From assembly GCF_020148005.1 (NCBI RefSeq), contig NZ_JAGXFD010000001.1, forward strand, positions 1,136,729 through 1,200,728: a stretch of 64,000 bases of DNA, in the 5' to 3' direction. Both the position numbers and the translations under genes were made by a program. Below are positions 1-16,659 of this stretch, one piece after another. Under the pieces are notes generated by a model, which did no database searches, was not told the origin of the DNA, and saw only the letters and a program-made list of their open reading frames with translations. Positions within the stretch are counted from its first letter, which is position 1; every line of letters begins with the position of its first letter. This stretch comes from Modicisalibacter tunisiensis (lineage in GTDB: Bacteria > Pseudomonadota > Gammaproteobacteria > Pseudomonadales > Halomonadaceae).

Positions 1-1871
1 GCGCATGGAGAACCGATCCCCGCAGGCGCGGGGATAACCCGCCCGACGGCACATTCGTGTCGCGTTCCTGCGGCCGATCCCCGCAGGCGCGGGGATAACC
101 CGATCAAGAAGTGCTTGCGGCTGGCGCAGTCGAGCCGATCCCCGCAGGCGCGGGGATAACCCGACCCGGCGCTTTGGCCGGGTCGTGGTGGATGCCCGAT
201 CCCCGCAGGCGCGGGGATAACCCGTCCCAGACGATCTGCTCCCAGGTGGTCAGCGGCCGATCCCCGCAGGCGCGGGGATAACCCGATGCTGGCGACGTTG
301 AAGCCGGCGCCGCGCGCCCGATCCCCGCAGGCGCGGGGATAACCCGGCCGTGTCGATGCAATTCCTGGTCTGCCTCGGCCGATCCCCGCAGGCGCGGGGA
401 TAACCCGGTCGGCGCCTTCCCCGAGCTGACCACCAGGGCCCGATCCCCGCAGGCGCGGGGATAACCCGGGGCCATCGGCAAACATCCCGCGCGTATGCTC
501 CCGATCCCCGCAGGCGCGGGGATAACCCGCACCGCCGCGGCGTCGAAATAGACCGACCGCCCCGATCCCCGCAGGCGCGGGGATAACCCGCATCCCGGCC
601 GCTGGCTGGGCACCGGCAACCGCCGATCCCCGCAGGCGCGGGGATAACCCGCCCGCAAACCCCCTCGACTTGGCCATCGTGCCCCGATCCCCGCAGGCGC
701 GGGGATAACCCCCGCGCGAGCTGGTGGCGGTGGTGCGCACGGTCCCGATCCCCGCAGGCGCGGGGATAACCCGGACGCCGCCTTGATCGACCTGCGCAAC
801 CGCTACCGATCCCCGCAGGCGCGGGGATAACCCGCGACATGCAAGGCGCCCAATGACGTCGCTCAGCCGATCCCCGCAGGCGCGGGGATAACCCGACGAG
901 CGGCATGCACCCCGAGGACCTGATCATCCGATCCCCGCAGGCGCGGGGATAACCCGCCGATCCCTGTCATGAGGGCGGAGACCACGACCCGATCCCCGCA
1001 GGCGCGGGGATAACCCGGCGTCGCGTCCCGGTTTCATCACCACCGCCCACCGATCCCCGCAGGCGCGGGGATAACCCGTTTCTTCACGGTGCCGAGGTGC
1101 TGGAGATCGACCGATCCCCGCAGGCGCGGGGATAACCCGCCCAGCGCCGAGCCCGCGAGTACGTCGACGAGCCGATCCCCGCAGGCGCGGGGATAACCCG
1201 CCCAGGTCCTCCAGGGGCGGCACCGGCGTGTACCGATCCCCGCAGGCGCGGGGATAACCCGGCCGAAAAGGACACGAAAACCGGCTCTCATTACCGATCC
1301 CCGCAGGCGCGGGGATAACCCGTTGACCCCGCGGCTGACCGGGGCGATGGTCCACCGATCCCCGCAGGCGCGGGGATAACCCGATCGTCCTCGCCGGCAG
1401 CGGCGACAACGCCAACCGATCCCCGCAGGCGCGGGGATAACCCGCGCCGACGTTCCTTGGCCTCCAGCCGGGCGAGCCGATCCCCGCAGGCGCGGGGATA
1501 ACCCGCGCACCCGCCGGCTGACGCTGATCGCCAACCGCCGATCCCCGCAGGCGCGGGGATAACCCCGCACGGGCAGCCTTGGCAGCATCCTTGATCGCCC
1601 GATCCCCGCAGGCGCGGGGATAACCCGTCCACATACCAGCGCGTCGCCAAGCACCGCGCCCGATCCCCGCAGGCGCGGGGATAACCCGCCGAGAGCGCCC
1701 GGGCGGCTGAAGCGAATGCCCCGATCCCCGCAGGCGCGGGGATAACCCGTCGTCGCGGATTTCCGGGAGCTTGGCGCCGACCCGATCCCCGCAGGCGCGG
1801 GGATAACCCGTCGACCAGGTCGAACCGGTTGGCCAGGTCGTCCCGATCCCCGCAGGCGCGGGGATAACCCG

Positions 1872-2025
1872 CGGATGATGTCATTGCCGTGTTCTGTCAG
1901 GAACCGATCCCCGCAGGCGCGGGGATAACCCGTGCCGGGCCTCGAGGCGACGATCCTGATGGAGCCGATCCCCGCAGGCGCGGGGATAACCCGGGGTTCG
2001 CCGCAGCCCGAGAGATGAAGAACGG
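1872..2025 (+). repeat. Three-spacer block, copy 1 of an intra-array duplication
   Basis: Spacers at 1872–1903, 1933–1964 and 1994–2025, with their two internal repeats, are identical to the block at 6270–6423. The spacers before and after the block differ between copies, so exactly three spacers were copied, presumably by recombination between repeats. Confidence 0.95.
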
Positions 2026-5000
2026 CCGATCCCCGCAGGCGCGGGGATAACCCGGGCTCAGAATAGGTGGCCAGCTTGTCGTTACTCCGATCCCCGCAGG
2101 CGCGGGGATAACCCAGCATCTCATTCGTGCTGACCGAGGCGCTGCGCCCCGATCCCCGCAGGCGCGGGGATAACCCGCAGATCAGCGGCATCGCGGCGCT
2201 GTTCCAGGATCCGATCCCCGCAGGCGCGGGGATAACCCGGTATTCGAGGCCCGGTCGGCGTCATCGACGATCCGATCCCCGCAGGCGCGGGGATAACCCG
2301 TCGCGGTTACTCGTGACGGGCAGCTGTGGCGCCCGATCCCCGCAGGCGCGGGGATAACCCGCCAGGGTGCCATCGATCGGATCCTCGACAAGTCCGATCC
2401 CCGCAGGCGCGGGGATAACCCGACATCGGCCTGCCCCTCCTTGTCGACGTTAAACCGATCCCCGCAGGCGCGGGGATAACCCGCCGGTGACGACCCCGGC
2501 GGATTGACGGTCGATCCGATCCCCGCAGGCGCGGGGATAACCCGGCCGTGCGCGCCGGGCTGGTCAGGGCAGTGTCCCGATCCCCGCAGGCGCGGGGATA
2601 ACCCGGTCTGGCCTCCATGTTCATGGCGTCGCGGCCGCCGATCCCCGCAGGCGCGGGGATAACCCGTACCTCGCCCGTCACCCACTTCCGAAAAGGTTTC
2701 CGATCCCCGCAGGCGCGGGGATAACCCGCGCGAGTGTTGCCGCACATAGACCGCTTGGCTCCGATCCCCGCAGGCGCGGGGATAACCCGTGGCAGAAGCC
2801 GGGGCCGGGCTGCTCGACAGCCCGATCCCCGCAGGCGCGGGGATAACCCGACCGGCCACGCAGATCTCGCGTGGGCGACGATCCGATCCCCGCAGGCGCG
2901 GGGATAACCCGCGCACGCGGACGTTGTCGGCGGTGCCCATCAGCCGATCCCCGCAGGCGCGGGGATAACCCGACGATGGCCAAGTCGGCCATCGCCTCTT
3001 CCACCCGATCCCCGCAGGCGCGGGGATAACCCGGAATAACACGCCCAGTCGTCCTAGCAACTGCCCCGATCCCCGCAGGCGCGGGGATAACCCGAACACG
3101 CCAGATGGTGCGCAAAGTCTTGCCAGCCGATCCCCGCAGGCGCGGGGATAACCCGGACGGCCTTGACCTGCTTCGCGTAGCGATACCCCGATCCCCGCAG
3201 GCGCGGGGATAACCCGACCCCCAGGCAGTCATCCATGGTCGAGTAACCCCGATCCCCGCAGGCGCGGGGATAACCCGCTGCTGCGCGGTCGCTCCCTGGT
3301 CTACCTCGACCGATCCCCGCAGGCGCGGGGATAACCCGGCGCGCAGCTGCTGGAGGATCGGCACCATGGCCCGATCCCCGCAGGCGCGGGGATAACCCGG
3401 TCGGTCGTTCTATGTCGGCAAGCAGGCGGGTCCGATCCCCGCAGGCGCGGGGATAACCCGGGGGCCGCTCGCGGTCTGGATCTCGCGTTGAACCGATCCC
3501 CGCAGGCGCGGGGATAACCCGGTCGCCGTAATCCCCTGCACCGCCAACGCCAGCCGATCCCCGCAGGCGCGGGGATAACCCGTATCAATATCACCTACAA
3601 CTATGCGCCGCACTCCGATCCCCGCAGGCGCGGGGATAACCCAGGCGAATCGCGAGGTCCACCTATTCAGCGGCCCCGATCCCCGCAGGCGCGGGGATAA
3701 CCCGAGCTGGTTGGAGTTGGTCAGGGCGTTGTCGAACCGATCCCCGCAGGCGCGGGGATAACCCGCCCGGCAGTTCGCCGTAGGTGGCGATGTACAGCCG
3801 ATCCCCGCAGGCGCGGGGATAACCCGCCGGAGATCAGCACCGGCCCCCGCATCATCCCCCGATCCCCGCAGGCGCGGGGATAACCCGGAATTGTCAGGAA
3901 ACACCAATAATGCAGGAATCCGATCCCCGCAGGCGCGGGGATAACCCGGACGCCGCCGAGGTCTACGGCTTCACCGGGCACCGATCCCCGCAGGCGCGGG
4001 GATAACCCGTCGGGGTGGTGGTCGCTCCACTGAATGGTCGGCCGATCCCCGCAGGCGCGGGGATAACCCGGTCCAGGCCAACGCCTACAACCCCAACGCT
4101 GTCCGATCCCCGCAGGCGCGGGGATAACCCGGGGGCACGACAGAACGAGATGGTGTTGAACAACCGATCCCCGCAGGCGCGGGGATAACCCGGCTTCCTG
4201 GCTCTGTCGCGCCTCAGCGATCGACCGATCCCCGCAGGCGCGGGGATAACCCGCTGTGACCCGAATCCGCGAGCAGTACCAAGGACCGATCCCCGCAGGC
4301 GCGGGGATAACCCGAAATCCTCGAACGTTTGGCTGAGCGGCACCTGCCCGATCCCCGCAGGCGCGGGGATAACCCGCACTGGGTGACGCCGGATTCTCTG
4401 GCGCTGCCCCGATCCCCGCAGGCGCGGGGATAACCCGCACTGGTTCACCACCAACGACGGCGGCGGCAACCGATCCCCGCAGGCGCGGGGATAACCCGAT
4501 CAGTCGGGTGGTGTGGTGCTGCCCGGTCTCCCGATCCCCGCAGGCGCGGGGATAACCCGCCAGGGCGTGGTACAGCTCGCTCACCTCGGGCCCGATCCCC
4601 GCAGGCGCGGGGATAACCCGATCATCGTGCCGCGTACCGGCGGTGTCGGCTCCCGATCCCCGCAGGCGCGGGGATAACCCGTGCTTGCTGTAGTGGGCCG
4701 CCTTTTCGAGTAACCGATCCCCGCAGGCGCGGGGATAACCCGCAGGTCATGCATTTTGTTGAGACGTTCGATATCCGATCCCCGCAGGCGCGGGGATATC
4801 CCGGTTCTCCATGAGCGCGACGAGGCGAAGGGTGTCCGATCCCCGCAGGCGCGGGGATAACCCGCCCAGCCGATCCGCTTGATCGGCGACCCAGCGCCGA
4901 TCCCCGCAGGCGCGGGGATAACCCGTACCCTCGCTGGGTCTCGGATGCCTTGCGCTCCCGATCCCCGCAGGCGCGGGGATAACCCGGCCGGCAAGTAATG

Positions 5001-6269
5001 CTCGGCGACGACGACTGGCCGATCCCCGCAGGCGCGGGGATAACCCGGACGCCCGCTGCCTGAACGACATCCTGGCGGACCGATCCCCGCAGGCGCGGGG
5101 ATAACCCGCTCACCGGCGATAACCCGGTTATCGTCCTCATCCGATCCCCGCAGGCGCGGGGATAACCCATTCCCGCTCCTCCTCACATCGACCCGTCATG
5201 CCCGATCCCCGCAGGCGCGGGGATAACCCGTTCATCCGCACCAAGAATCGGCTGGTCTGGTACCGATCCCCGCAGGCGCGGGGATAACCCGGCTTTTGTG
5301 CCTGTACTTCGACGACATCGAAACCGATCCCCGCAGGCGCGGGGATAACCCGCCACCGCTCGTTGTTCAGGTACGTGGTCGGGTCCGATCCCCGCAGGCG
5401 CGGGGATAACCCAGAGATTCACGACATGCTGCTGGACATCATGGAGCCGATCCCCGCAGGCGCGGGGATAACCCGGTCGTGGACATCCCGCGACAGCTTC
5501 AGATCGACCGATCCCCGCAGGCGCGGGGATAACCCGCAGGCGCTGATGACGATCGTGGACGATGCCCACCGATCCCCGCAGGCGCGGGGATAACCCGGTT
5601 GCCTGCTGTTGCCGTTTGTTGCCTGAGCGCCGATCCCCGCAGGCGCGGGGATAACCCGGCCGGCATTGATCGTCTCGATCAGGAAGATCGCCGATCCCCG
5701 CAGGCGCGGGGATAACCCGCCCGGTCATCTTGTGGACGGCTTGCTGTTTGCCCGATCCCCGCAGGCGCGGGGATAACCCGGCGCGCGCTCAGGCATGGGC
5801 GAAGCAGGTCGACCGATCCCCGCAGGCGCGGGGATAACCCGCCAACGTCTGGCCACCATTGCCGAGCGCTATGCCGATCCCCGCAGGCGCGGGGATAACC
5901 CGCCCTTCCCTTGGCTTCATAGTCGCTGGTTTCACCGATCCCCGCAGGCGCGGGGATAACCCGTCAGGGAAAAGCGAGGTCCGCAGGTGGAGGATCCGAT
6001 CCCCGCAGGCGCGGGGATAACCCGGAGCACCCAATTGGAGGGAGGGCCGCATGCCTGCCGATCCCCGCAGGCGCGGGGATAACCCGGCCGTGTAGACGCT
6101 CAGGAGCGCTCCGAGATCCCGATCCCCGCAGGCGCGGGGATAACCCCGCCGTCTTCCGACTGGAACTTCCCCGCCAACGCCGATCCCCGCAGGCGCGGGG
6201 ATAACCCGCCGGGGTGCTTGTAAGCCGACCGACCCCAACGCCGATCCCCGCAGGCGCGGGGATAACCCG

Positions 6270-6423
6270 CGGATGATGTCATTGCCGTGTTCTGTCAGGA
6301 ACCGATCCCCGCAGGCGCGGGGATAACCCGTGCCGGGCCTCGAGGCGACGATCCTGATGGAGCCGATCCCCGCAGGCGCGGGGATAACCCGGGGTTCGCC
6401 GCAGCCCGAGAGATGAAGAACGG
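6270..6423 (+). repeat. Three-spacer block, copy 2 of an intra-array duplication
   Basis: Identical over 154 bp to 1872–2025 and displaced by 4398 bp, which is 72 repeat-spacer units plus six bases. Being nearer the trailer, this may be the older location, but the direction of copying cannot be told from sequence alone. Confidence 0.95.
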
Positions 6424-8711
6424 CCGATCCCCGCAGGCGCGGGGATAACCCGCATTACCCGCCTGACCCACTCTAGGAGGATTGCCGATCCCCGCAGGCG
6501 CGGGGATAACCCGTAAAGCTCGACGCTCATGTCACTGGTCCGGACCCGATCCCCGCAGGCGCGGGGATAACCCGACGCGCACGCCCTGGTCTCGCAGGCA
6601 GCGCGCCCGATCCCCGCAGGCGCGGGGATAACCCGGCATCGGGACGCTGGCCGAGTGCCCGGTTGATCCGATCCCCGCAGGCGCGGGGATAACCCGCCAG
6701 GGATGCTCTACAACTTCAGCCCGGACCACCGATCCCCGCAGGCGCGGGGATAACCCGCCACCAGCGTGTAGTCGGCGGTACCGCTGTCCCCGATCCCCGC
6801 AGGCGCGGGGATAACCCGTCCTATGAGCAGGACGGCAAGGGGATGGAGGACCGATCCCCGCAGGCGCGGGGATAACCCGATTCTCAGCCGCGCTGACCAG
6901 CGTGAAAGCCCCCGATCCCCGCAGGCGCGGGGATAACCCGCTGGTCGACTGGATCCGCAACGACCAGCGCCACCGATCCCCGCAGGCGCGGGGATAACCC
7001 GGCCGCAAGTTCGCCCAGGGCGGGCTGTTCACCCCGATCCCCGCAGGCGCGGGGATAACCCGATTTCCGCCCATACGTAGTCGCCGCTCTGGGACCGATC
7101 CCCGCAGGCGCGGGGATAACCCTCAGGTAGTCCTGGCCGTGGCGCTTATCGATCTCCGATCCCCGCAGGCGCGGGGATAACCCGAAGGGGCGTTCGGTGG
7201 CCGAGTTCGAGCAGCTTACCGATCCCCGCAGGCGCGGGGATAACCCGGTGAAGCCCGGCACGCTTGTCGGGGCTAGGCGCCGATCCCCGCAGGCGCGGGG
7301 ATAACCCGGACTGGACGGCCTTCGCCGACGCCGCCGACGCCCGATCCCCGCAGGCGCGGGGATAACCCGGGCTTGCCGTTGACGTTGACGGTGTCGGACC
7401 CCCGATCCCCGCAGGCGCGGGGATAACCCGGCGTCCAGCTTGGTCTCCATGCGAGCCAGGGTCCGATCCCCGCAGGCGCGGGGATAACCCGCGCACTGGC
7501 GTCAGCTTCCAGACTGCGCACCTCCGATCCCCGCAGGCGCGGGGATAACCCGCACTTTTGGCGTATTGGCCCAGTAGGCTGGATCCGATCCCCGCAGGCG
7601 CGGGGATAACCCGCTGGTTGGCGAGAGACAACTCATCATGACCACCCGATCCCCGCAGGCGCGGGGATAACCCGCGATAGCCGGTCACGCGCAGCGTCCG
7701 GCCGGCCCGATCCCCGCAGGCGCGGGGATAACCCGCCGCCCGCGACGGTCAGCGACAGGTCGGTGAACCGATCCCCGCAGGCGCGGGGATAACCCGGATC
7801 AGGCCAAACGCCTGGAGCAGCTGGTCAGCCGATCCCCGCAGGCGCGGGGATAACCCGAACACGGTGAACCTATTCCATTTGGCGTTGGACCGATCCCCGC
7901 AGGCGCGGGGATAACCCGCAGCGACGCACATCTCGAAGGACGTCCGCCAGCCGATCCCCGCAGGCGCGGGGATAACCCGCTGTGGGATGGCATCAAGGGC
8001 GCTGCCGAGTGCCGATCCCCGCAGGCGCGGGGATAACCCGGCCGACGCTCAGGTGGGCTGGTCTGCTCTCGGCCGATCCCCGCAGGCGCGGGGATAACCC
8101 GGCTGTCGTGGTCGCCGCGGGGTGATTGCGGCTCCGATCCCCGCAGGCGCGGGGATAACCCGGACAGCGACGCCGCCAAGACTGGGCTCGAGACCCGATC
8201 CCCGCAGGCGCGGGGATAACCCGAAAGGAGAGCGACACGAGGCCCCCCGCGAAGCCCGATCCCCGCAGGCGCGGGGATAACCCGGCACTCCGCTGGCCGC
8301 GCCGTCGCCGGGTTCGCCGATCCCCGCAGGCGCGGGGATAACCCGGTGCGGGGTAGGCTTCCCCCGGTGCGGCGTCGCCGATCCCCGCAGGCGCGGGGAT
8401 AACCCGGCGTCGACGATCGCCTCGCGGGCGAAGTAGAACCGATCCCCGCAGGCGCGGGGATAACCCGGGTTCTGGCGCGAACTGGAGTTCAATGAGTGGC
8501 CGATCCCCGCAGGCGCGGGGATAACCCGCGCCTCGGCCTGGCCTTCAAGGCCATGGTGGACCGATCCCCGCAGGTGCGGGGATAAGCCGTACGGGTCGAT
8601 GAAGGCGCTGCCGCACGAGATCCGGTCCCCGCAGGCGCGGGGATAACCCGTGCATGGCGAAGCCCTGACCTGGTCGACCGGCCCGATCCCCGCAGGCGCG
8701 GGAATAACCCG

Positions 8712-8804
8712 AACACCCACCTGAGCCGCGAGGTTCGCGAGGTCCGATCCCCGCAGGCGCGGGGATAACCCGAACACCCATCTGAGCCGCGAGGTTCGCG
8801 AGGC
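8712..8804 (+). repeat. Two adjacent near-identical spacers at the trailer end
   Basis: Spacers 8712–8743 and 8773–8804 differ at two positions only (C at 8720 against T at 8781, and the last base T against C). They are separated by one repeat. A tandem duplication followed by mutation, or capture from two related targets, would both explain this. Confidence 0.9.
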
Positions 8805-8963
8805 CTGATCCCCGCAGATGCGGGGATAACCCGCTGCTGCGCAGCAAGGCGCGCAAGAACACCGCCCGGTCCCCGCAGGCGCGGGGATAATCGTTTGCGT
8901 TCGCTGCCGCCCAGACAGTCCAGAAAGCAGTTCCTGCTGTAGGAAAATACGTCTCGAGAATAC

Positions 8964-9000
8964 GAGCGTCTTTCCACACAGGGAAAAGACGCTCATTTTT
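8964..9000 (+). terminator. Rho-independent terminator closing the CRISPR array
   Basis: Stem arms GAGCGTCTTT (8964–8973) and AAAGACGCTC (8985–8994) pair perfectly over 10 bp around a short loop and are followed by ATTTTT. It points in the + direction, 70 bp after the last repeat, and would end the pre-crRNA transcript. The reverse orientation has no T tract. Confidence 0.88.
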
Positions 9001-9177
9001 CTATCCACGCCTGATCGGGGCGGGCGGTGTAGATGGTTGAGGGGCCGATCCTTTCGCAGACGTTTCGGTGGAATCGTCAGTGGCTTGCGTTCTGGTATTC
9101 AACCGTCGATCGATATGAGCGAGAAGCAGCAGTTGCAGGGCGAGGAAGCCGAAGCAGGTGGTGACACTGAGTGCCAT
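9001..9177 (-). CDS. Possible 58-aa single-pass membrane peptide
   Basis: The frame starting MALSVTTC carries one hydrophobic stretch around residues 8–21 (CFGFLALQLLLLAHI) and then a polar, Ser/Thr/Pro-rich tail. The ATG at 9177 has no convincing ribosome binding site, and the reading frame stays open upstream to 9348 with low-quality composition. The stop abuts the terminator of the CRISPR array. I do not recognise a family. It could be a real small membrane protein or a chance frame in GC-rich DNA. Confidence 0.3.
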   Translation of the reverse strand: MALSVTTCFGFLALQLLLLAHIDRRLNTRTQATDDSTETSAKGSAPQPSTPPAPIRRG

Positions 9178-9274
9178 GGGGGCGTACTCGAAAACGGCGG
9201 ATGCCGCTCGTGGAGTATAGCCGGTGCAGGGCGTTCGGCGAGGGCGGTCAGCCCGCCGGAGCGGGCTGCGGGGC

Positions 9275-9451
9275 TCAGTGTTCGTCGTTCTCGAAGCGCT
9301 CGGCGGCGCGCAGCGCTTCGTCCTGGGTGTCGTGCTCGGAGACGACATTCTCGTTGTCGGGCTGGCTCTCGTCGATCACGACCCAGCCGGTGATCTTCTC
9401 GTTCATGTCGCGGGCGGCGAATACCGGTTCCACACGGGCTTGTTTCTGCAT
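9275..9451 (-). CDS. Small acidic hypothetical protein, 58 aa
   Basis: This frame encodes a 58-residue protein starting MQKQARVEPV and ending ERFENDEH. A good ribosome binding site (AAGGAG, six bases before the ATG at 9451) supports the start. The protein is acidic, with a probable beta hairpin around residues 18–27 (NEKITGWVVI) and a C-terminal helix (DEALRAAERF). An inverted repeat AGCCCGC/GCGGGCT lies at 9250–9267 just downstream and may help termination. No function is recognised. It sits beside the metallothionein gene on the same strand, with about 57 bp between them, so the two may be cotranscribed. Confidence 0.6.
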   Translation of the reverse strand: MQKQARVEPVFAARDMNEKITGWVVIDESQPDNENVVSEHDTQDEALRAAERFENDEH

Positions 9452-9508
9452 GGTCGCTCCTTGGCCGGAAATGATGGGGGCGGTTTTCCTCTTTCGGTAC
9501 GTTTCGGC

Positions 9509-9712
9509 TCAGACGCCGTCGCGGGGTAGATCGCCGGCAGCCGGACGGTTGAGTTCGGTGCAGGGGCAGCCTTCGTGGACGCAGGACATGCCGTCGGGGT
9601 GACCGGCTGCGCAGGCCGAGCAGCAGAAGGCCTGGCCTTCGCTCATCGCGCTCTGCTCGCTGGTGACCTGGTGTTCGCAGCCCACGCAGGCGCAGGTTCC
9701 CAGATCGGCCAT
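9509..9712 (-). CDS. Bacterial metallothionein, 67 aa
   Basis: A cysteine-rich protein that would bind Zn, Cd or Cu in the cytoplasm. Nine cysteines are seen at residues 7, 9, 12, 30, 31, 34, 44, 49 and 51, in the order CACVGC, then FCCSACAAGHP, then a C-terminal GCPC. The CCxxCAxGHP segment is the hallmark of the SmtA/BmtA/PmtA family. In cyanobacterial and Pseudomonas members the first cluster is usually CxCxxCxC; here the last position of it is His (CEH). The start at 9712 has AGGAG seven bases upstream. The chain is longer than Pseudomonas PmtA because of an extra acidic tail after residue 52. Family assignment is firm; metal preference is not known. Confidence 0.9.
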   Translation of the reverse strand: MADLGTCACVGCEHQVTSEQSAMSEGQAFCCSACAAGHPDGMSCVHEGCPCTELNRPAAGDLPRDGV

Positions 9713-9960
9713 CGTTGTCTCCTGTTTGGCGGATTCACCAATCAAGGTAGTCAAGCCGCGGGGCGCTTTGCCAATCGATCGGGCAGCGTGTGGTAGGCGG
9801 CGAGCACCTCGCGAAAGGTGGCGCGACGAGGCTCTGAAATCGGGCGGCGTCGCGTCGCTGGCTCGAGTAACCAGCGACGCGCGACACAACAGACCGATGA
9901 AGCGCGGTGCGTCCGGCACCGCGTTTCAGCATGCGTCCTGACGGGGGCGGGTATCGAGTC
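9713..9960. other. Intergenic region with two inverted repeats
   Basis: No gene is supported here. An 11-bp perfect stem (CGCGTCGCTGG at 9851–9861, CCAGCGACGCG at 9871–9881) and an 8-bp stem (CGCGGTGC at 9903–9910, GCACCGCG at 9916–9923, followed by TTT) lie between the metallothionein gene and the next gene. The second could be a weak terminator on the + strand; the first has no T tract and could be an operator or RNA hairpin. Confidence 0.55.
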
Positions 9961-10269
9961 TCAGTTGTCGGCGTCGGGGGCGGCCGGCTGAAAGGCCCGC
10001 TTGTCGTCGGGCAGGCGCACCATGTCGCCAAGATTCAGCTCGCCGAGCGACTTCATGCGTTCGCCGCTGTCGGGGTCGATCAGCGCGACAACCTCGCCGA
10101 TGCTGGTGGCGTCGCGGTAGGCCTCGACGCGCACGCGCACGCTGACGCCGCGGTAGCGGCCGGTGAGGATGCTGCCGGGGTGGGGCTCGCCGTAGTCGTT
10201 GGGGTCCTTGGCGTAATGCGCGCTGACGCTGCCGGCGCCGGGGGAATCCCATTCGATGTGCTTGTGCAT
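9961..10269 (-). CDS. Hypothetical protein, 102 aa
   Basis: The protein starts MHKHIEWDSP; AGGAG lies eight bases before the ATG at 10269, which is why the longer upstream frame to 10332 was not used. It is soluble, rich in charged residues, with several probable beta strands in the middle (SVRVRVEAYRD, EVVALIDPDSGERM) and a disordered, Pro/Ala-rich C-terminus. No signal peptide or membrane segment is seen. I do not recognise a family. It is transcribed away from the DUF2231 gene at 10453, leaving a shared 183-bp promoter region. Confidence 0.65.
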   Translation of the reverse strand: MHKHIEWDSPGAGSVSAHYAKDPNDYGEPHPGSILTGRYRGVSVRVRVEAYRDATSIGEVVALIDPDSGERMKSLGELNLGDMVRLPDDKRAFQPAAPDADN

Positions 10270-10452
10270 GAAAATCTCCTGTTGCGGGATGAAGTTACCG
10301 TCAGGGTAGCGCGCCAGGCGTGGCTCGCCCATGGGGTGGCGGACATTCGGTCATTAAGCCAGTGTTAAGACGAATGCGCTGTGCTGGGGTAGCGAATTGA
10401 CGCTAACGGCGTGGCCGTCCGGCGGCCATGCCTCGGTAACGGGAGGTACCCG

Positions 10453-10914
10453 ATGTCGATGGCCCATATTCATCCCATGCTGGTTCACTTTCCCATCGTG
10501 CTCTGGCTGCTGGCCGTGGCCTGCCAGTGTCTGGTGGTGTTGCGCGGGGAGACGTTCGAGCGACGGCGAAGCTGGCAGAAGGCGTCGCTGTGGCTGCTGG
10601 TGCTGGGCACGCTCGGGGGCCTTGTTGCGGCCGGCTTCGGCGATGCGGCCTTCGATATCGCCCGAGAGAAGGGTTTCCCCGCGGCGCCCATCGAGTCCCA
10701 CGAGGAGCTGGCGATGACCACGCTGACCGTGTTCGGGCTGCTCACCCTGGTTCAGGCGGTGGTCTACTGGCGGCGCATTGCGCTCAACCGGGCGCTTTCG
10801 TGGGTCATGCCGGTGGCGGGCCTGGCAGGGGTCGTGCTGATGCTGATGACCGCGGATCACGGTGGCGACCTGGTCTACGAGATCGGCGTCAACGTGGCGG
10901 CGGCACATCCCTGA
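10453..10914 (+). CDS. DUF2231-type membrane protein, 153 aa
   Basis: A small integral membrane protein with four hydrophobic segments, beginning with the family signature HIHPMLVHFPIVLW near the N-terminus. This His-Pro-x-x-VHFP pattern in the first helix is typical of DUF2231 proteins, some of which are thought to bind haem or take part in membrane redox chemistry; no function is established. GGGAGG seven bases before the ATG at 10453 supports this start rather than the upstream one at 10411. A GC-rich hairpin follows between this gene and the convergent ompW gene. Confidence 0.8.
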   Translation: MSMAHIHPMLVHFPIVLWLLAVACQCLVVLRGETFERRRSWQKASLWLLVLGTLGGLVAAGFGDAAFDIAREKGFPAAPIESHEELAMTTLTVFGLLTLVQAVVYWRRIALNRALSWVMPVAGLAGVVLMLMTADHGGDLVYEIGVNVAAAHP

Positions 10915-10926
10915 CGGCGTCTGCGC

Positions 10927-10954
10927 GCCGCCCCGGCACGCTGGCCGGGGCGGC
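10927..10954. terminator. GC-rich hairpin between convergent genes
   Basis: Perfect 11-bp arms GCCGCCCCGGC (10927–10937) and GCCGGGGCGGC (10944–10954) with a 6-base loop. No T run follows on either side, but its place between two convergent stops suggests a bidirectional terminator. Confidence 0.6.
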
Positions 10955-10965
10955 CTGAAGCCGAC

Positions 10966-11592
10966 TCAGAAGCGGAAGCTGAGCCCGCCCATCACCACGA
11001 CCGGGTCGATCTCGACGTTGGCGTCGTAGTTCACGCCGCCCACGGTAGCGGTGGCATCGCTGTCGATATCGAGGTACCAGGCGGCGGCGTTGAGCGCCCA
11101 GTGCTCGTCGATCAGCAGGTCGACGCCGACCTGGGCGGCGGCGCCCCAGGAGTCGTCGAGGTTGAGCGTGCCGACATCGAGCGTCTCGTCGGAGAAGTGG
11201 GTGTAGTTGATGCCGGCGCCGAGATAGGGCTGCACGCGCGAGGCGGTGCCGCCCAGCGGGTAGTACTGCAGGGTCAGGGTCGGCGGCAGGTGCTTGGTGG
11301 AGGCGAGGTTGTCGCCGTTGAGCGCGATATCGTGCTCGAAGGGCTGGGCGGCGAGCAGCTCGACACCCAGCGTGTCGGTGAAGCGGTAGCCGAGGGTGAA
11401 GGCGAAGGCGCTGTCATCGCCGACGTCGACGTCGAGCCCCAGGTCGCTGAAGCGGCCGTTGTCGCCGGTGGGATCGACCTTGGCGACCCCGAAGCGGGTG
11501 AACAGGTCGCCCTGGCCGTAGGCGAGGGCGGAGGCACTGGTCATCAGGCCGCCGGCGAGCAGGGCGGCGGAAAGCAGGGCGGGGGTGCGCAT
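10966..11592 (-). CDS. OmpW family outer membrane protein, 208 aa
   Basis: An eight-stranded outer membrane barrel of the OmpW/AlkL type, which passes small hydrophobic compounds. A signal peptide is seen at residues 1–24 (MRTPALLSAALLAGGLMTSASALA). The mature part begins with FTRFGVAKVDP, contains the family pattern LPPTLTLQYYP and PYLGAGINYTHF, and ends in SFRF, the C-terminal aromatic signal for barrel assembly. AGGAG lies upstream of the ATG at 11592; the longer frame to 11754 has no such support. Length fits the family (about 200–215 aa). It faces the DUF2231 gene tail to tail. Confidence 0.92.
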   Translation of the reverse strand: MRTPALLSAALLAGGLMTSASALAYGQGDLFTRFGVAKVDPTGDNGRFSDLGLDVDVGDDSAFAFTLGYRFTDTLGVELLAAQPFEHDIALNGDNLASTKHLPPTLTLQYYPLGGTASRVQPYLGAGINYTHFSDETLDVGTLNLDDSWGAAAQVGVDLLIDEHWALNAAAWYLDIDSDATATVGGVNYDANVEIDPVVVMGGLSFRF

Positions 11593-11757
11593 CTCGAAGT
11601 CTCCTGAGCAGGGGTGGATCATGGCCGCGCGACATGACGCGCCGCCGGGATGAACCCCGCCACAATAACCCTTCAGTTTGTGTGGATATTTGCGCTGGGA
11701 CAAGTTTGGGGCCCGGTCGTGGGCCCGGCGATTTCGAAACCTGTTGCAGGTCAAGAA

Positions 11758-11798
11758 ACGACGACCCCGCCGGGGCGAGGCGCCGGCGGGGTCGTCGT
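11758..11798 (-). terminator. Terminator downstream of typA
   Basis: Sixteen-base arms (11758–11773 and 11783–11798) pair perfectly and, read on the minus strand, are followed by TTTCTT. It begins 15 bp after the typA stop codon. Confidence 0.85.
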
Positions 11799-11812
11799 GA
11801 GGCGGGGCGTGC

Positions 11813-13639
<1,827 letters not shown>

Positions 13640-13818
13640 GACGGGATCCTGCAGGGAAATAAGGGGCGCATTATAGTGGCTAGCCCCCGGCCCCTGCCAC
13701 CATTGGGCGCGGCTTTCGGCCACTTTGTCGATGTCGTGATCCACGTCAAGCCGTCCTGCCGGTCTTCTTCCTAGTCTGGAGGAGCACGTTTTCGAGACGA
13801 TCTGCAAGGAGGTTGGTG

Positions 13819-14457
13819 ATGAAGGCATGGCTCTTGGGCGGTTTGCTGGCGGCGTCACTGGGTCTGGGTTCCGGCGTGGCGTTGGCTCACGGCAATGACG
13901 GCGGCCGGTTCGATCATGGCGGCTACGGCGCGGGCATGGGTCCGGGCATGATGGGCGGCTACGGCGCGGGCATGGGTCCCGGCATGATGGGCGGTTATGG
14001 CGCGGGCATGGGCCCCGGCATGATGGGCGGCTACGGCGCGGGCATGGGTCCCGGCATGATGGGCGGCTATGGCGCGGGCATGGGCCCCGGCATGATGGGC
14101 GGCTATGGTCCGGGCATGGGCCCCGGCATGATGGACGACGATGACGATGAGGCCGGCGGCTGGTACGGGCGCGGCATGCGGGGCAACCCGTCGTGGCAGC
14201 GGGGGCCGCAGGGCGAGAAGCTGCGCCAGCTCCAGCGTGACTTCTTCAAGGAGCAGCAGCCGCTGATGGAAAAGATGATGGAGCAGCGCCTGCGACTGCG
14301 GGAGCTGTCGCTGGACGACAAGGCGGACCCGGAACAGGCCGGCAAGGTCTATGCGGAGATCTTCCGCCTGCGGCGCCAGATGCAGGAGAACGCCCGGCAA
14401 ATGCACGAACAGCTCTACCAGATGATGGAGCAGAACCAGCAGGACCAGTCGCCGTGA
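13819..14457 (+). CDS. Periplasmic Spy/ZraP-like protein with Met/Gly repeats, 212 aa
   Basis: An exported protein with a signal peptide at residues 1–23. Residues 34–105 are six consecutive 12-residue repeats of the form GGYGAGMGPGMM, the sixth with P for A. Then come an acidic patch (DDDDDEAGG) and a long charged helix region (about 130–210, RQLQRDFFKEQQPLMEKMM and similar) typical of the Spy/CpxP/ZraP metal-stress chaperones. The Met-rich part suggests binding of Cu(I) or Ag(I), but that is inference. AAGGAGG six bases before the ATG at 13819 fixes the start. It is transcribed divergently from typA. Confidence 0.72.
   Translation: MKAWLLGGLLAASLGLGSGVALAHGNDGGRFDHGGYGAGMGPGMMGGYGAGMGPGMMGGYGAGMGPGMMGGYGAGMGPGMMGGYGAGMGPGMMGGYGPGMGPGMMDDDDDEAGGWYGRGMRGNPSWQRGPQGEKLRQLQRDFFKEQQPLMEKMMEQRLRLRELSLDDKADPEQAGKVYAEIFRLRRQMQENARQMHEQLYQMMEQNQQDQSP
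13918..14133 (+). repeat. Six in-frame 36-bp tandem repeats
   Basis: The 36-bp unit encodes GGYGAGMGPGMM and repeats six times without interruption. Copies differ by silent changes only (for example GGTCCC against GGCCCC, TAC against TAT) except the last, where Ala becomes Pro. Copy number is likely to vary between strains. Confidence 0.95.
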
Positions 14458-14467
14458 GTGTTCGGGC

Positions 14468-15457
14468 TCACAGCTGTCCGAGCAGGTAGTCGAACAGCCG
14501 CCCGGGGCTCTGCGCCAGCGGCTGGGTCAGCGGGATGCGGGGCAGGGCAAGCGGGTCGCTGCGTGGCGACAGCCAGCCACCCTGCCCGGCCAGCGCCAGG
14601 CTGACGCCGCACTGGCCGACCAGCCGCCGTAGACGCGGCGAGGGTTGCCGGTCGGGATAGGCGAAGACCGGCAGCGGTTCGCGGCACAGCCGGGCGAGTT
14701 CCTGGCGGGCGCGCTTCACCTGGCGGCGTACGGCGTCATCGTCGAGCGGCTCCAGGTCGTTCAGGCCCACGCCGCGCCAGCCGAAGCGTACCAGGCCCTC
14801 GTGTTCCAGCCGGCGGATACTGAAGGGGTCGAGGTTGTGGGGCGCCTCGTCCAGTTCGCCGTGCAGGTAGTCGGCCACCGCGGCGAGACGGCGCGGGTCC
14901 TGGCCCTCGAGCTGCGTCAGGTAGCGGGCCAGGGCGCGGCTGTAGGCGGTGTCGGGGCACGCGGGCGGCAGGGGCGGTCGCGGCAGGCCGGCATCGGCCA
15001 GGGTGTCGTGGATGCGTCGGGCGGCGTGCCCCTCCCACAGGCCTTCGCCGATGGTGAGGCGCCAGCAGCCCCGCGGATGGCGCAGCCAGCCGGTACTCAG
15101 GAACACGCTGGCGGGGATGGCGTAGTGCGCGAGCAGCGGCATGGCCACCTCGAGCGTGCTGCGCCAGCCGGCATCGAAGGTCAGGGCGATGCGGGCCTGC
15201 GGATCATGATGGGGTTGCAGTGCCGTGCCCAGGCAGACCAGCCGGGCGATGTCGCTCAGGTTGATCAGCAGCCGCTCCAGGCTCTCGCGCCCCAGGCACC
15301 AGGGAGCTCGATGCGGCAGCCGGGCCTCGGCATCTCTGGGCAGCACCCGGGGCAGCACGAGAATCGCACTGCGCCCCCACAGCGGTTCCGCCTGGCTGCG
15401 CCGCCAGTGCCCGCGCAGTCGGCAGGCCAGTTCCTGCGCCATATCCAGCCCGTTCAT
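14468..15457 (-). CDS. Polysaccharide deacetylase-like protein, probably lacking the metal site, 329 aa
   Basis: The fold of the NodB/polysaccharide deacetylase family is suggested by IALTFDAGWRSTLEVAMPLL (motif 1, about residues 92–111) and the strand-turn VFAYPD near residue 268. However, motif 1 reads TFDAG instead of TFDDG, so the metal-binding Asp is missing, and the region where HSxxH should stand reads RGVGLND, without either His. It may therefore be a catalytically dead homologue. GGAGG stands before the ATG at 15457, so the longer frame to 15778 was rejected. It follows the glycosyltransferase gene by about 80 bp on the same strand and is probably in its operon. Confidence 0.7.
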   Translation of the reverse strand: MNGLDMAQELACRLRGHWRRSQAEPLWGRSAILVLPRVLPRDAEARLPHRAPWCLGRESLERLLINLSDIARLVCLGTALQPHHDPQARIALTFDAGWRSTLEVAMPLLAHYAIPASVFLSTGWLRHPRGCWRLTIGEGLWEGHAARRIHDTLADAGLPRPPLPPACPDTAYSRALARYLTQLEGQDPRRLAAVADYLHGELDEAPHNLDPFSIRRLEHEGLVRFGWRGVGLNDLEPLDDDAVRRQVKRARQELARLCREPLPVFAYPDRQPSPRLRRLVGQCGVSLALAGQGGWLSPRSDPLALPRIPLTQPLAQSPGRLFDYLLGQL

Positions 15458-15537
15458 GGCATTTTCCTCCCCGCGCGTTCGGCGCGCGCCACCTCCGTGT
15501 CTCGTCAGTCTATCCCAGGACCCAACATCGTCGCTGT

Positions 15538-16101
15538 TCATCCTGCCGAGCGCTGGCCGTCTCCCATGCGTCGTTGCAGCACGCTGGCATGACAGGCACG
15601 CAGGCGAACCAGCAGATCGCGCTCGGCCGTGCCTTCCCGCTCCGGGTCGAAGCCGCCGACCCGTTCGAACCAGCTGTGGCGCATCGCCAGCAGCCGAATC
15701 CGCCCGCCGCCGCCGGGCAGGCGCGACAGCCAGTGCGTGGCGAGCCAGCCATTGCTGACCAGGGCAACGACATCCCACTGCGGCGAGGTCAACGCCTGGT
15801 CGACCAGGGTCAGCCAGCCCGGCGGCGGGTCGATCGCCGGATCGAGAAACAGCAGGACGTCGGCCTGGCTGCGGTTGGCGGCGATGTTGAGGCGTTGTCC
15901 GCGCGTCAGGTCGGGCAGCAGCAGCTGCCGGGCGCCATGGGTATCGGCCAGTCGCTCGATGCGACTGCGAGACTTGTCGACGAGCAGCCAGATCTCGTGA
16001 CGGGTGGGCGTCTGGCCGAAGTCCCGCGCGAGGCCGGCCAGGCAGCGCCCCAGGCGTGCATGACCGCGGCGGGCGTCAAGGATGACACTGTAGGAATGCA
16101 T
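15538..16101 (-). CDS. Family 2-type glycosyltransferase, short form, 187 aa
   Basis: A compact nucleotide-sugar transferase of the GT-A fold. SYSVILDARRGHARLGRCL at the N-terminus matches the first strand and helix, VLLFLDPAIDPPPGWL (about residues 86–101) is the DxD-like segment, and RVGGFDPEREGTAERDLLVRL is the acceptor-side GGFD…E(R)DL motif. At 187 residues it is shorter than most family members (230–330). The start at 16101 is chosen because homology begins there; no strong ribosome binding site is present, and the open frame to 16398 upstream has no family similarity. It is upstream of the deacetylase-like gene, so both may act on one surface glycan or glycolipid. Confidence 0.7.
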   Translation of the reverse strand: MHSYSVILDARRGHARLGRCLAGLARDFGQTPTRHEIWLLVDKSRSRIERLADTHGARQLLLPDLTRGQRLNIAANRSQADVLLFLDPAIDPPPGWLTLVDQALTSPQWDVVALVSNGWLATHWLSRLPGGGGRIRLLAMRHSWFERVGGFDPEREGTAERDLLVRLRACHASVLQRRMGDGQRSAG

Positions 16102-16356
16102 AATGGCGGTCCAGTGACGGTGCCGACCGGTTGCCGTGTCGCCGGCCGCCCGAAGCACCGCGCCCTTGGCGCTCGGTAGTGGTTTGTCAGCGTGCCCTGC
16201 CGTCCCGCGCGTTGTTTGTAATAAAGCGTAGCCAGTGGTTTCAGAGGGTATCAATGTGGCAGCCTGCTGATTTTGCACGCCTTCGCGGCTGATTTTTTCC
16301 TGTGCGCACGGTTGAGAAGTCCCATCGGGGGAGCCGTTCGGGGCGTGGCGATCAAG

Positions 16357-16373
16357 CGCACCATTATGGTGCA
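16357..16373 (+). promoter_or_regulatory. NtrC binding site upstream of glnA
   Basis: CGCACCATTATGGTGCA matches the NtrC consensus TGCACC-n5-GGTGCA at all but the first base. It lies about 180 bp upstream of the sigma-54 promoter, a usual distance for an enhancer. Confidence 0.85.
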
Positions 16374-16533
16374 TTGGTGGGAGCGGGTGATCGTTCATGG
16401 TGCATGAGCGCGGCCAGGACGGGGGCTACCATTCCGGCCTCCGGCATTCCGGGACACACCTGGTCTCGCCGAGGCGAGGTTTGTTGCTGTATTTCAATGG
16501 GTTGCAAGGGGGTGGCAAAGCGATGCGCCATTT

Positions 16534-16549
16534 TGGCACGGTGTCTGCA
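16534..16549 (+). promoter_or_regulatory. Sigma-54 promoter of glnA
   Basis: TGGCACGGTGTCTGCA has GG at 16535–16536 and GC at 16547–16548, exactly ten bases apart, as required for -24/-12 promoters. The start site would be near 16560, about 100 bp before the glnA ATG. Confidence 0.88.
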
Positions 16550-16659
16550 TTTCATTTTCCAGAACGGCACGTCATGGGCAATCCTGAAGCGGCGTGCTAC
16601 AACGACGCTGGACACGCAAGCCATCGATTCGAGCTATCGGCTCATTTGTGGAGGACATC

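What the first reader, a model, noticed from the sequence alone, without database searches (positions are those of the whole stretch)
1..8894. Very long type I-E array, still incomplete at the window edge
About 146 repeats are visible and the leader end is not reached. Arrays of this size are uncommon in Gammaproteobacteria. The almost perfect repeat conservation over the first 8.5 kb suggests active upkeep and many acquisitions. The approximately 142 different spacers are a long record of the mobile elements met by this lineage.
Basis: partly seen in the sequence, partly recalled or inferred. Interest (0 to 1): 0.6.

Follow-up and report, generated by a model that had tools for sequence, protein, structure and literature searches.

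The report
Long, mosaic halomonad CRISPR immune array
A bacterium related to salt-loving halomonads carries a complete, ordinary kind of CRISPR immune system with an unusually long memory of 162 stored fragments, and the part that writes and stores this memory appears to have been swapped with a related species as one block of DNA.

Summary
The window holds the last 146 repeats of a type I-E array; the whole array has 163 repeats and 162 spacers (159 distinct), window -1027 to 8894. A 106-bp leader and an intact cas3-cse1-cse2-cas7-cas5-cas6-cas1-cas2 operon lie just left of the window. In the phage and prophage loci examined, 34 of 159 distinct spacers match with at most 6 mismatches (reversed control: 1), with AAG at 18 of 34 best matches; targets include P2-like and phiHAP-1-like halomonad phages. 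So this is an ordinary, probably active I-E system, long but not extreme: 9 of 275 family genomes hold at least 100 such repeats.

Less expected: the locus is a mosaic. Against the congener T82-2, the stretch from mid-cas5 to 139 bp past the array differs at 8 of 3045 compared sites; adjoining flanks differ by 6-7%, cas3 and cse2 by 14-18%, cse1 partly more. The six oldest spacers are shared and identical. Simplest reading: adaptation genes, leader and array were exchanged between species by homologous recombination, followed by near-complete spacer turnover. A spacer trio duplicated 72 units apart points to rearrangement within the array.

The parts
1..8894 (+). Window part of the type I-E CRISPR array: repeats 18-163, spacers 18-162 (plus the end of spacer 17). 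The array begins at window -1027; the leader, cas2, cas1, cas6, cas5, cas7, cse2, cse1 and cas3 lie further left (locus L002 7465-16701) and read in the same direction.
1843..2025 (+). First copy of a three-spacer block (repeats and spacers 48-50)
6241..6423 (+). Second, identical copy of the three-spacer block (spacers 120-122), 72 units away, with different neighbours on both sides
8500..8894 (+). Trailer end: repeats 157-163 and spacers 157-162, identical in Halomonadaceae bacterium T82-2, including the degenerate repeats
8561..8894 (+). Degenerate trailer repeats 158-160, 162 and 163 (repeat 161 is consensus)
8895..9033 (.). 139 bp beyond the array, still identical to T82-2; identity falls to about 94% from 9034, taken as the right edge of the exchanged stretch

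Best explanation
This is a complete type I-E CRISPR-Cas system with one long array. Shown: the anatomy, the orientation (leader next to cas2, degenerate and shared old units at the far end), protospacers in halomonad phages and prophages, an AAG-type PAM, and a mosaic locus. Inferred: Cas1-Cas2 insert 32-nt pieces next to AAG at the leader end, Cas6e cuts the hairpin repeats into crRNAs, and Cascade with Cas3 destroys matching phage DNA. Also inferred: long after the two species split, a block running from inside cas5 through cas6, cas1, cas2, leader, array and 139 bp of trailer was exchanged by homologous recombination between the lineages of this genome and T82-2 (or came to both from one donor). 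Each array then replaced nearly everything but the six oldest spacers, reaching 162 here and about 109 in T82-2, while the block changed by about 0.3%.
For: Operon intact and of I-E type; repeat hairpin of 8 bp, -15.7 kcal/mol; leader similar by eye in five other halomonads and 99.1% identical in T82-2. The PAM-derived last repeat base is G in 154 of 162 units and spacers are 32 nt in 152 of 162. 33 of 159 distinct spacers match with at most 6 mismatches (32 positions counted) in 180 phage or prophage loci against 0 of 159 reversed spacers; with 180 more viral loci, 34 against 1. AAG stands at the PAM of the best match in 18 of 33 (background 1.2% in 11 loci). Six spacers (37, 41, 64, 66, 72, 155) hit one P2-like prophage segment. 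Mosaic: 8 mismatches in 3045 sites of the block, against 201 in about 3277 alignment columns of trailer flank; fitted left edge L002:14189, log-likelihood gain 61.6. Silent divergence: cas1 0.004, cas6 0.011, three upstream ORFs 0.088-0.159, cas3/cse1/cse2 0.41-0.49, so purifying selection does not explain the block. A further 10 kb of window is 90-92% identical to T82-2.
Against: No expression, crRNA, interference or acquisition data. 125 of 159 distinct spacers have no match with at most 6 mismatches in the loci examined, and 16 of 34 best matches lack AAG. Spacers 64 and 155, in conserved terminase genes, match 98 and 57 loci, mostly without AAG. The best matches are not all independent (160 and 161 share one protospacer), and many loci were brought in by the spacers themselves; in viral loci not chosen that way it is 16 against 1. 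Only one relative shares the block, so donor and direction are unknown. cas7 (96.6%) and the first part of cas5 are patchy, so more than one exchange is likely. The three upstream ORFs were not verified as genes. The T82-2 array is split over two contigs, so its total of about 109 spacers is inferred from two ends.
Confidence: 0.85

Rival explanations
1. Vertical inheritance only: both species inherited the locus, and cas6-cas1-cas2-leader look alike because they are under strong purifying selection.
For: Cas1 is a conserved protein: 100% identical to T82-2 and roughly 89-95% to most other halomonads listed.
Against: Silent sites are also nearly identical in cas1 and cas6, while three flanking ORFs differ at 9-16% of silent sites. 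Spacers, degenerate repeats and 139 bp of trailer are identical and then change sharply. cas1 of the next best of the compared loci is only about 84% identical in DNA.
Confidence: 0.07
2. The length is an assembly artefact of expanded or collapsed repeats.
For: One spacer trio occurs twice, and repeats are hard for assemblers in general. No reads were available.
Against: 156 of 159 distinct spacers occur once, so units are individually anchored. The two trio copies have four different neighbours, so each junction must be present in some molecule. The array lies inside a 3.2 Mb contig.
Confidence: 0.05
3. A fossil locus: the array is a record only, and interference or acquisition no longer works.
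For: No functional data; the trailer repeats are degenerate; own Cse1 has an unusually divergent central segment.
Against: All eight genes are open and match their family models over nearly the whole length, Cas5 by Pfam and Cas3 over 6-803 of 878. Repeats 1-157 are uniform but for repeat 96. 156 spacers lie leader-side of the shared six, and all but spacer 21 are absent from the T82-2 array as held, although the neighbouring DNA differs by only 0.3%.
Confidence: 0.08
4. The duplicated trio arose by replication slippage (tandem duplication and later deletion) rather than by joining two diverged copies of the array.
For: Duplicated spacers or blocks occur in 16 other arrays measured here, 1 to 36 units apart. 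SpacerPlacer reports that most complex events are simple duplications and cites array recombination as rare (PMC11472070, passages).
Against: The copies lie 72 units apart with unrelated neighbours. Slippage would need a 72-unit duplication followed by an exact deletion of 69 units.
Confidence: 0.45

Closest known systems
Type I-E CRISPR-Cas of Halomonadaceae (e.g. T82-2, Halomonas beimenensis, H. faecis)
   Same: Closely related Cas1, cas genes, leader and repeat family; arrays of 100 or more repeats recur.
   Different: Longest single array measured here (163), though H. faecis has at least 157 and is cut by the fetched stretch; own Cse1 has a uniquely divergent central segment.
Type I-E of Escherichia coli (K-12 and B-8552 variants, PMC12736100, passages)
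   Same: Gene order, AAG-type PAM (recalled for E. coli), and a mosaic operon in which casA, cas1 and cas2 stay alike while other genes differ.
   Different: There the contrast is within one species and between far more divergent alleles. Here the near-identical block also takes in cas6, leader, array ends and trailer, and links two species.
Salmonella type I-E cas-STY/cas-STM (PMC7712790, passages)
   Same: cas and leader phylogeny at odds with MLST, taken there as horizontal transfer.
   Different: Base-level edges and shared old spacers were not in the passages that I saw.

Membership tests
CRISPR-Cas type I-E | Signature Cse1 and Cse2 beside Cas7, Cas5, Cas6e and Cas3 | tested here: met
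   TIGR02547, TIGR02548, TIGR01869, TIGR01868 and TIGR01907 over curated cut-offs; Cas3 meets the Cas3 helicase and HD domain models but is below the full-length PRK09694 cut-off
CRISPR-Cas type I-E | Cas1e and Cas2e adaptation genes | tested here: met
   TIGR03638 374.2 bits (cut-off 215.6); TIGR01873 129.5 bits (cut-off 33.15)
CRISPR-Cas type I-E | 29-nt hairpin repeat and 32-nt spacers | tested here: met
CRISPR-Cas type I-E | AAG-type PAM next to protospacers | tested here: met
   AAG at 18 of 33 best matches, background 1.2%; 16 of 34 lack it
CRISPR-Cas type I-E | crRNA processing, DNA interference and spacer acquisition | not testable with these tools
   needs experiments
Exchange of a cas/array block by homologous recombination | Sharp edges separating low from background divergence, also at silent and non-coding sites | tested here: met
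Exchange of a cas/array block by homologous recombination | A donor lineage in which the block matches its own genome background | tested here: inconclusive
   of 48 loci compared besides T82-2, the next best match to the block is only about 84%

The most novel reading that the evidence does not exclude
CRISPR memory and its writing machinery (cas6-cas1-cas2-leader-array) travel between halomonad species as one recombining cassette, separately from the effector genes, which have their own, deeper exchange history. The array was also lengthened by joining two diverged allelic arrays at a shared spacer trio. The 0.3% divergence of the cassette then gives a clock: about 155 spacers gained here in that time.
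Probability: 0.45. Interest if true: 0.55.

Novelty: new member of a known kind. Interest (0 to 1): 0.38.

Why it matters
The system itself is ordinary. Its value is as a case in which the separate histories of memory, writing genes and effector can be read at base level in one locus. The passages I saw call recombination between arrays rare (PMC11472070; PMC8549365; both citing Kupczok et al.). A locus with clear edges and shared oldest spacers would let spacer turnover be measured against substitutions, and would show an inherited record moved between species. The spacers also name P2-like and phiHAP-1-like phages among the elements that this lineage has met.

Tried and rejected
Plasmid search of the array (40 of 150 records listed) returned mainly what look like other organisms' CRISPR arrays matching the repeats, so no plasmid protospacers were taken from it. 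The phage search gave weak hits in 15 and 3 records; three of the 15 were fetched and the 3 from the leader-side part were not used. The cross-array comparison at the end was unreliable, because spacer cores were trimmed at differing offsets (it missed the spacers known to be shared with T82-2); searches replaced it. Only its list of duplications within single arrays of at least 31 repeats is used. Array length failed for 5 loci (runs of N) and gave nothing for 2 of 80, leaving 73 measured; it cannot much exceed 157 repeats because loci end 10 kb past cas1. The trailer-flank ORF values include overlapping spurious frames and are not used. cas2 gave no silent-site value (shorter than the ORF cut-off). 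The scan of six leaders for an IHF-like motif (recalled consensus) found none with at most one mismatch, a result against a simple E. coli-like IHF site. No donor for the Cse1 central segment was found (best 66% in 275 family genomes; best 63% in 80 named loci). Self-targeting was tested only in the window and the 18.5 kb to its left (best 8 mismatches). One P2-like terminase was not found in this genome or in T82-2, while 3 of 3 prophage carriers in the same call gave it. In some searches only two candidate stretches per genome were scored, so those tallies are lower bounds.

Full report
WHAT IS THERE. The window is C1:1136729-1200728 of a 3.55 Mb genome in 8 contigs. It begins inside a CRISPR array that starts 1,028 bp further left. 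The whole array has 163 repeats, consensus CCGATCCCCGCAGGCGCGGGGATAACCCG, and 162 spacers; 146 repeats and 145 complete spacers (142 different) lie in the window, and the last repeat ends at 8894. Spacers are 32 nt in 152 of 162 cases, 33 nt in 9 and 34 nt in 1. The last repeat base, which in type I-E comes from the PAM (recalled), is G in 154 of 162. The repeat folds into an 8-bp hairpin. 157 of 163 repeats are identical over their first 28 bases; the variants are repeat 96 and five of the last six.

THE CAS OPERON. In L002 (18.5 kb ending just inside the window) lie cas3 7465-10152, cse1 10375-12138, cse2 up to 12791, cas7 12788-13894, cas5 13869-14660, cas6 14660-15352, cas1 15377-16297 and cas2 16299-16595, as open frames in the array's direction (start codons not verified). 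Seven pass curated type I-E or family cut-offs; Cas3 passes the helicase and HD domain models but not the full-length E. coli-type model. 106 bp of leader follow cas2 and look alike in five other halomonads. Cas1 is found once in this genome.

HOW LONG IS LONG. Of 14 genomes held for the genus, 2 carry Cas1e over the cut-off; of 275 in the family, 64 do. Nine of 275 have at least 100 matches to a generic I-E hairpin core: 249, 163 (this genome), 150, 130, 119, 111, 107, 104 and 103 (whole-genome counts, not single arrays). In 80 named loci around the closest cas1 genes, 73 arrays could be measured, and five had at least 100 repeats: H. faecis 157 or more (cut by the stretch), H. alkaliantarctica 150, Vreelandella stevensii 114, H. 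beimenensis 109, Chromohalobacter beijerinckii 108. CRISPRCasdb states that the majority of bacterial genomes hold 50 spacers or fewer in total and that the longest array has 587 (PMC7145573, passages). So the array is long and the longest fully measured here, but not extraordinary.

WHAT IT REMEMBERS. Halomonas phage vB_HboP_4908 is matched by spacer 37 (3 mismatches), 40 and 64 (5 each), 66 (6) and 72 (8), counted over 33 nt. Protospacer-bearing stretches were sought in 275 family genomes with spacers 1-156, longer pieces were fetched, and 80 viral contigs around a P2-like portal gene were added. In these 180 loci (2.29 Mb), 33 of 159 distinct spacers match with at most 6 mismatches over 32 positions, and 0 of 159 reversed spacers do. 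With 180 more viral loci the count is 34 against 1. In the 261 viral loci that were not chosen by spacer search across genomes, it is 16 against 1; these were reached through proteins of target phages, and one, vB_HboP_4908, was itself found through spacer 37. AAG stands at the PAM in 18 of the 33 best matches, against a background of 1.2%; 16 of 34 lack it. Spacers 64 and 155, in conserved terminase genes, match 98 and 57 loci, mostly without AAG. One 20-kb P2-like prophage segment is hit by six spacers (37, 41, 64, 66, 72, 155). Twenty target ORFs were scanned against PHROGs: 6 had no family; others were tail sheath, tail, neck, terminase, portal, tape measure, helicase, helicase loader and ParA genes, and one of unknown function. 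The ParA target is 77% identical to that of Halomonas phage phiHAP-1. Spacer 49, one of the duplicated trio, matches perfectly, with AAG, a contig that also carries matches (3 mismatches, AAG) to spacers 160 and 161. One P2-like terminase used as a query was not found in this genome or in T82-2, while 3 of 3 prophage carriers gave it in the same call.

THE MOSAIC. One congener, G006, has the same locus; the end of its contig C15 is letter for letter the fetched part of LSBP01000039.1, 'Halomonadaceae bacterium T82-2'. Its array is interrupted in a repeat by what looks like an insertion sequence, with contig ends on both sides; the parts hold 29 intact repeats plus the interrupted one, and 80 repeats. 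The six trailer spacers 157-162 are identical in both, in order, together with the degenerate repeats; apart from these only spacer 21 is shared, with unrelated neighbours. DNA identity is 92.7% over the aligned upstream part, 85.5% cas3, 80.8% and 94.2% over two parts of cse1 (its middle did not align), 81.9% cse2, 96.6% cas7, 96.0% cas5, 99.4% cas6, 99.9% cas1, 100% cas2, 99.1% leader, 94.4% trailer flank. Base by base, the change falls at L002:14189 inside cas5. From there to the first repeat there are 8 mismatches in 2512 sites. From repeat 157 to 139 bp past the array there are 0 in 533. From window 9034 on, 201 of about 3277 alignment columns differ. Silent divergence is 0.004 in cas1 and 0.011 in cas6, against 0.145 in cas5 as a whole, 0.104 in cas7, 0.088, 0.120 and 0.159 in three upstream ORFs and 0.41-0.49 in cas3, cse1 and cse2. 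A further 10 kb of window is 90-92% identical to T82-2. cas3 and cse2 of the two genomes are about as far apart as each is from other genera, and the two cse1 genes more so.

INTERPRETATION. Selection on Cas1 and Cas2 cannot explain identical silent sites, spacers and trailer with sharp edges. The simplest reading is that a block from mid-cas5 through the array was exchanged between these lineages, or received by both from one source, well after they split. Since then the block changed at 8 of 3045 compared sites, while 155 spacers here and about 102 in T82-2 became unshared. Which lineage gave is unknown: among 48 other loci the next best match to the block is about 84%. The effector genes have a different, deeper history. 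cas7 has a patch of 99.6-100% identity between less similar stretches, so there was probably more than one exchange.

THE TRIO. Spacers 48-50 recur as 120-122 with four different neighbours. Re-acquisition of three in order is implausible. Either two diverged copies of the array recombined next to the trio, or a long duplication was followed by an exact deletion. Sixteen other arrays measured here hold duplicated spacers or blocks, 1 to 36 units apart. I cannot decide between these.

KNOWN WORK. Mosaic I-E operons are on record: E. coli has two variants in which casA, cas1 and cas2 are alike while cas3, cas7, cas5 and cas6 differ (PMC12736100, passages), and Salmonella cas and leader trees conflict with MLST (PMC7712790, passages). 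Recombination between arrays is called rare (PMC11472070, passages; PMC8549365, passages; both citing Kupczok et al., which was not held). A review describes stable trailer ends, duplications and deletions (PMC8047081, passages). My searches on transfer of arrays with cas genes listed no paper that by its title or abstract start describes this block, and a search on Halomonas type I-E arrays listed 6 papers, none evidently about it; I saw only listings and passages, so I do not claim absence from print. The verdict is a new member of a known kind, with a cleaner mosaic than expected.

Noticed in passing
L002:10819-11382 (outside the window, left): The central 188 residues of this genome's Cse1 are at most 66% identical to those of the 56 other family genomes with a match, while T82-2 and six other halomonads agree at 82-95% in about this part; the flanking parts are ordinary. 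No donor found.
   Followed up: partly
locus L116; window spacers 37, 41, 64, 66, 72, 155: A single P2-like prophage segment carries protospacers of six spacers, which suggests repeated, perhaps primed, acquisition against one phage group.
   Followed up: partly
window 225-256 (spacer 21); L032: Spacer 21 is identical to a spacer in the middle of the T82-2 array with unrelated neighbours: independent acquisition of the same protospacer, or a second array exchange.
   Followed up: partly
window 8712-8804 (spacers 160 and 161): Two adjacent spacers differ at 2 of 33 bases and match the same ParA gene of phiHAP-1-like elements; Onishia taeanensis (L256) carries an array spacer 4 mismatches away.
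   Followed up: partly
L026 end and L032 start (G006): The T82-2 array is interrupted inside a repeat by what looks like an insertion sequence with inverted ends.
   Followed up: no
G006:C3 (L027): T82-2 has a second type I-E Cas1 (298 bits) and, near it, another long array with a different repeat; the genome holds 249 I-E-like repeats in all.
   Followed up: no
L002:5014-7059: A PHA synthase (phaC) lies left of cas3 on the other strand; this stretch does not align well with T82-2, so the cas locus sits at a point of gene-content difference.
   Followed up: no
phage record OR820920.1: The terminase of 'Bacillus phage vB_BpuM-ZY1' is 79.5% identical to that of a halomonad P2-like prophage, closer than the Halomonas phage at 75.1%; the host label may deserve a check.
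   Followed up: no
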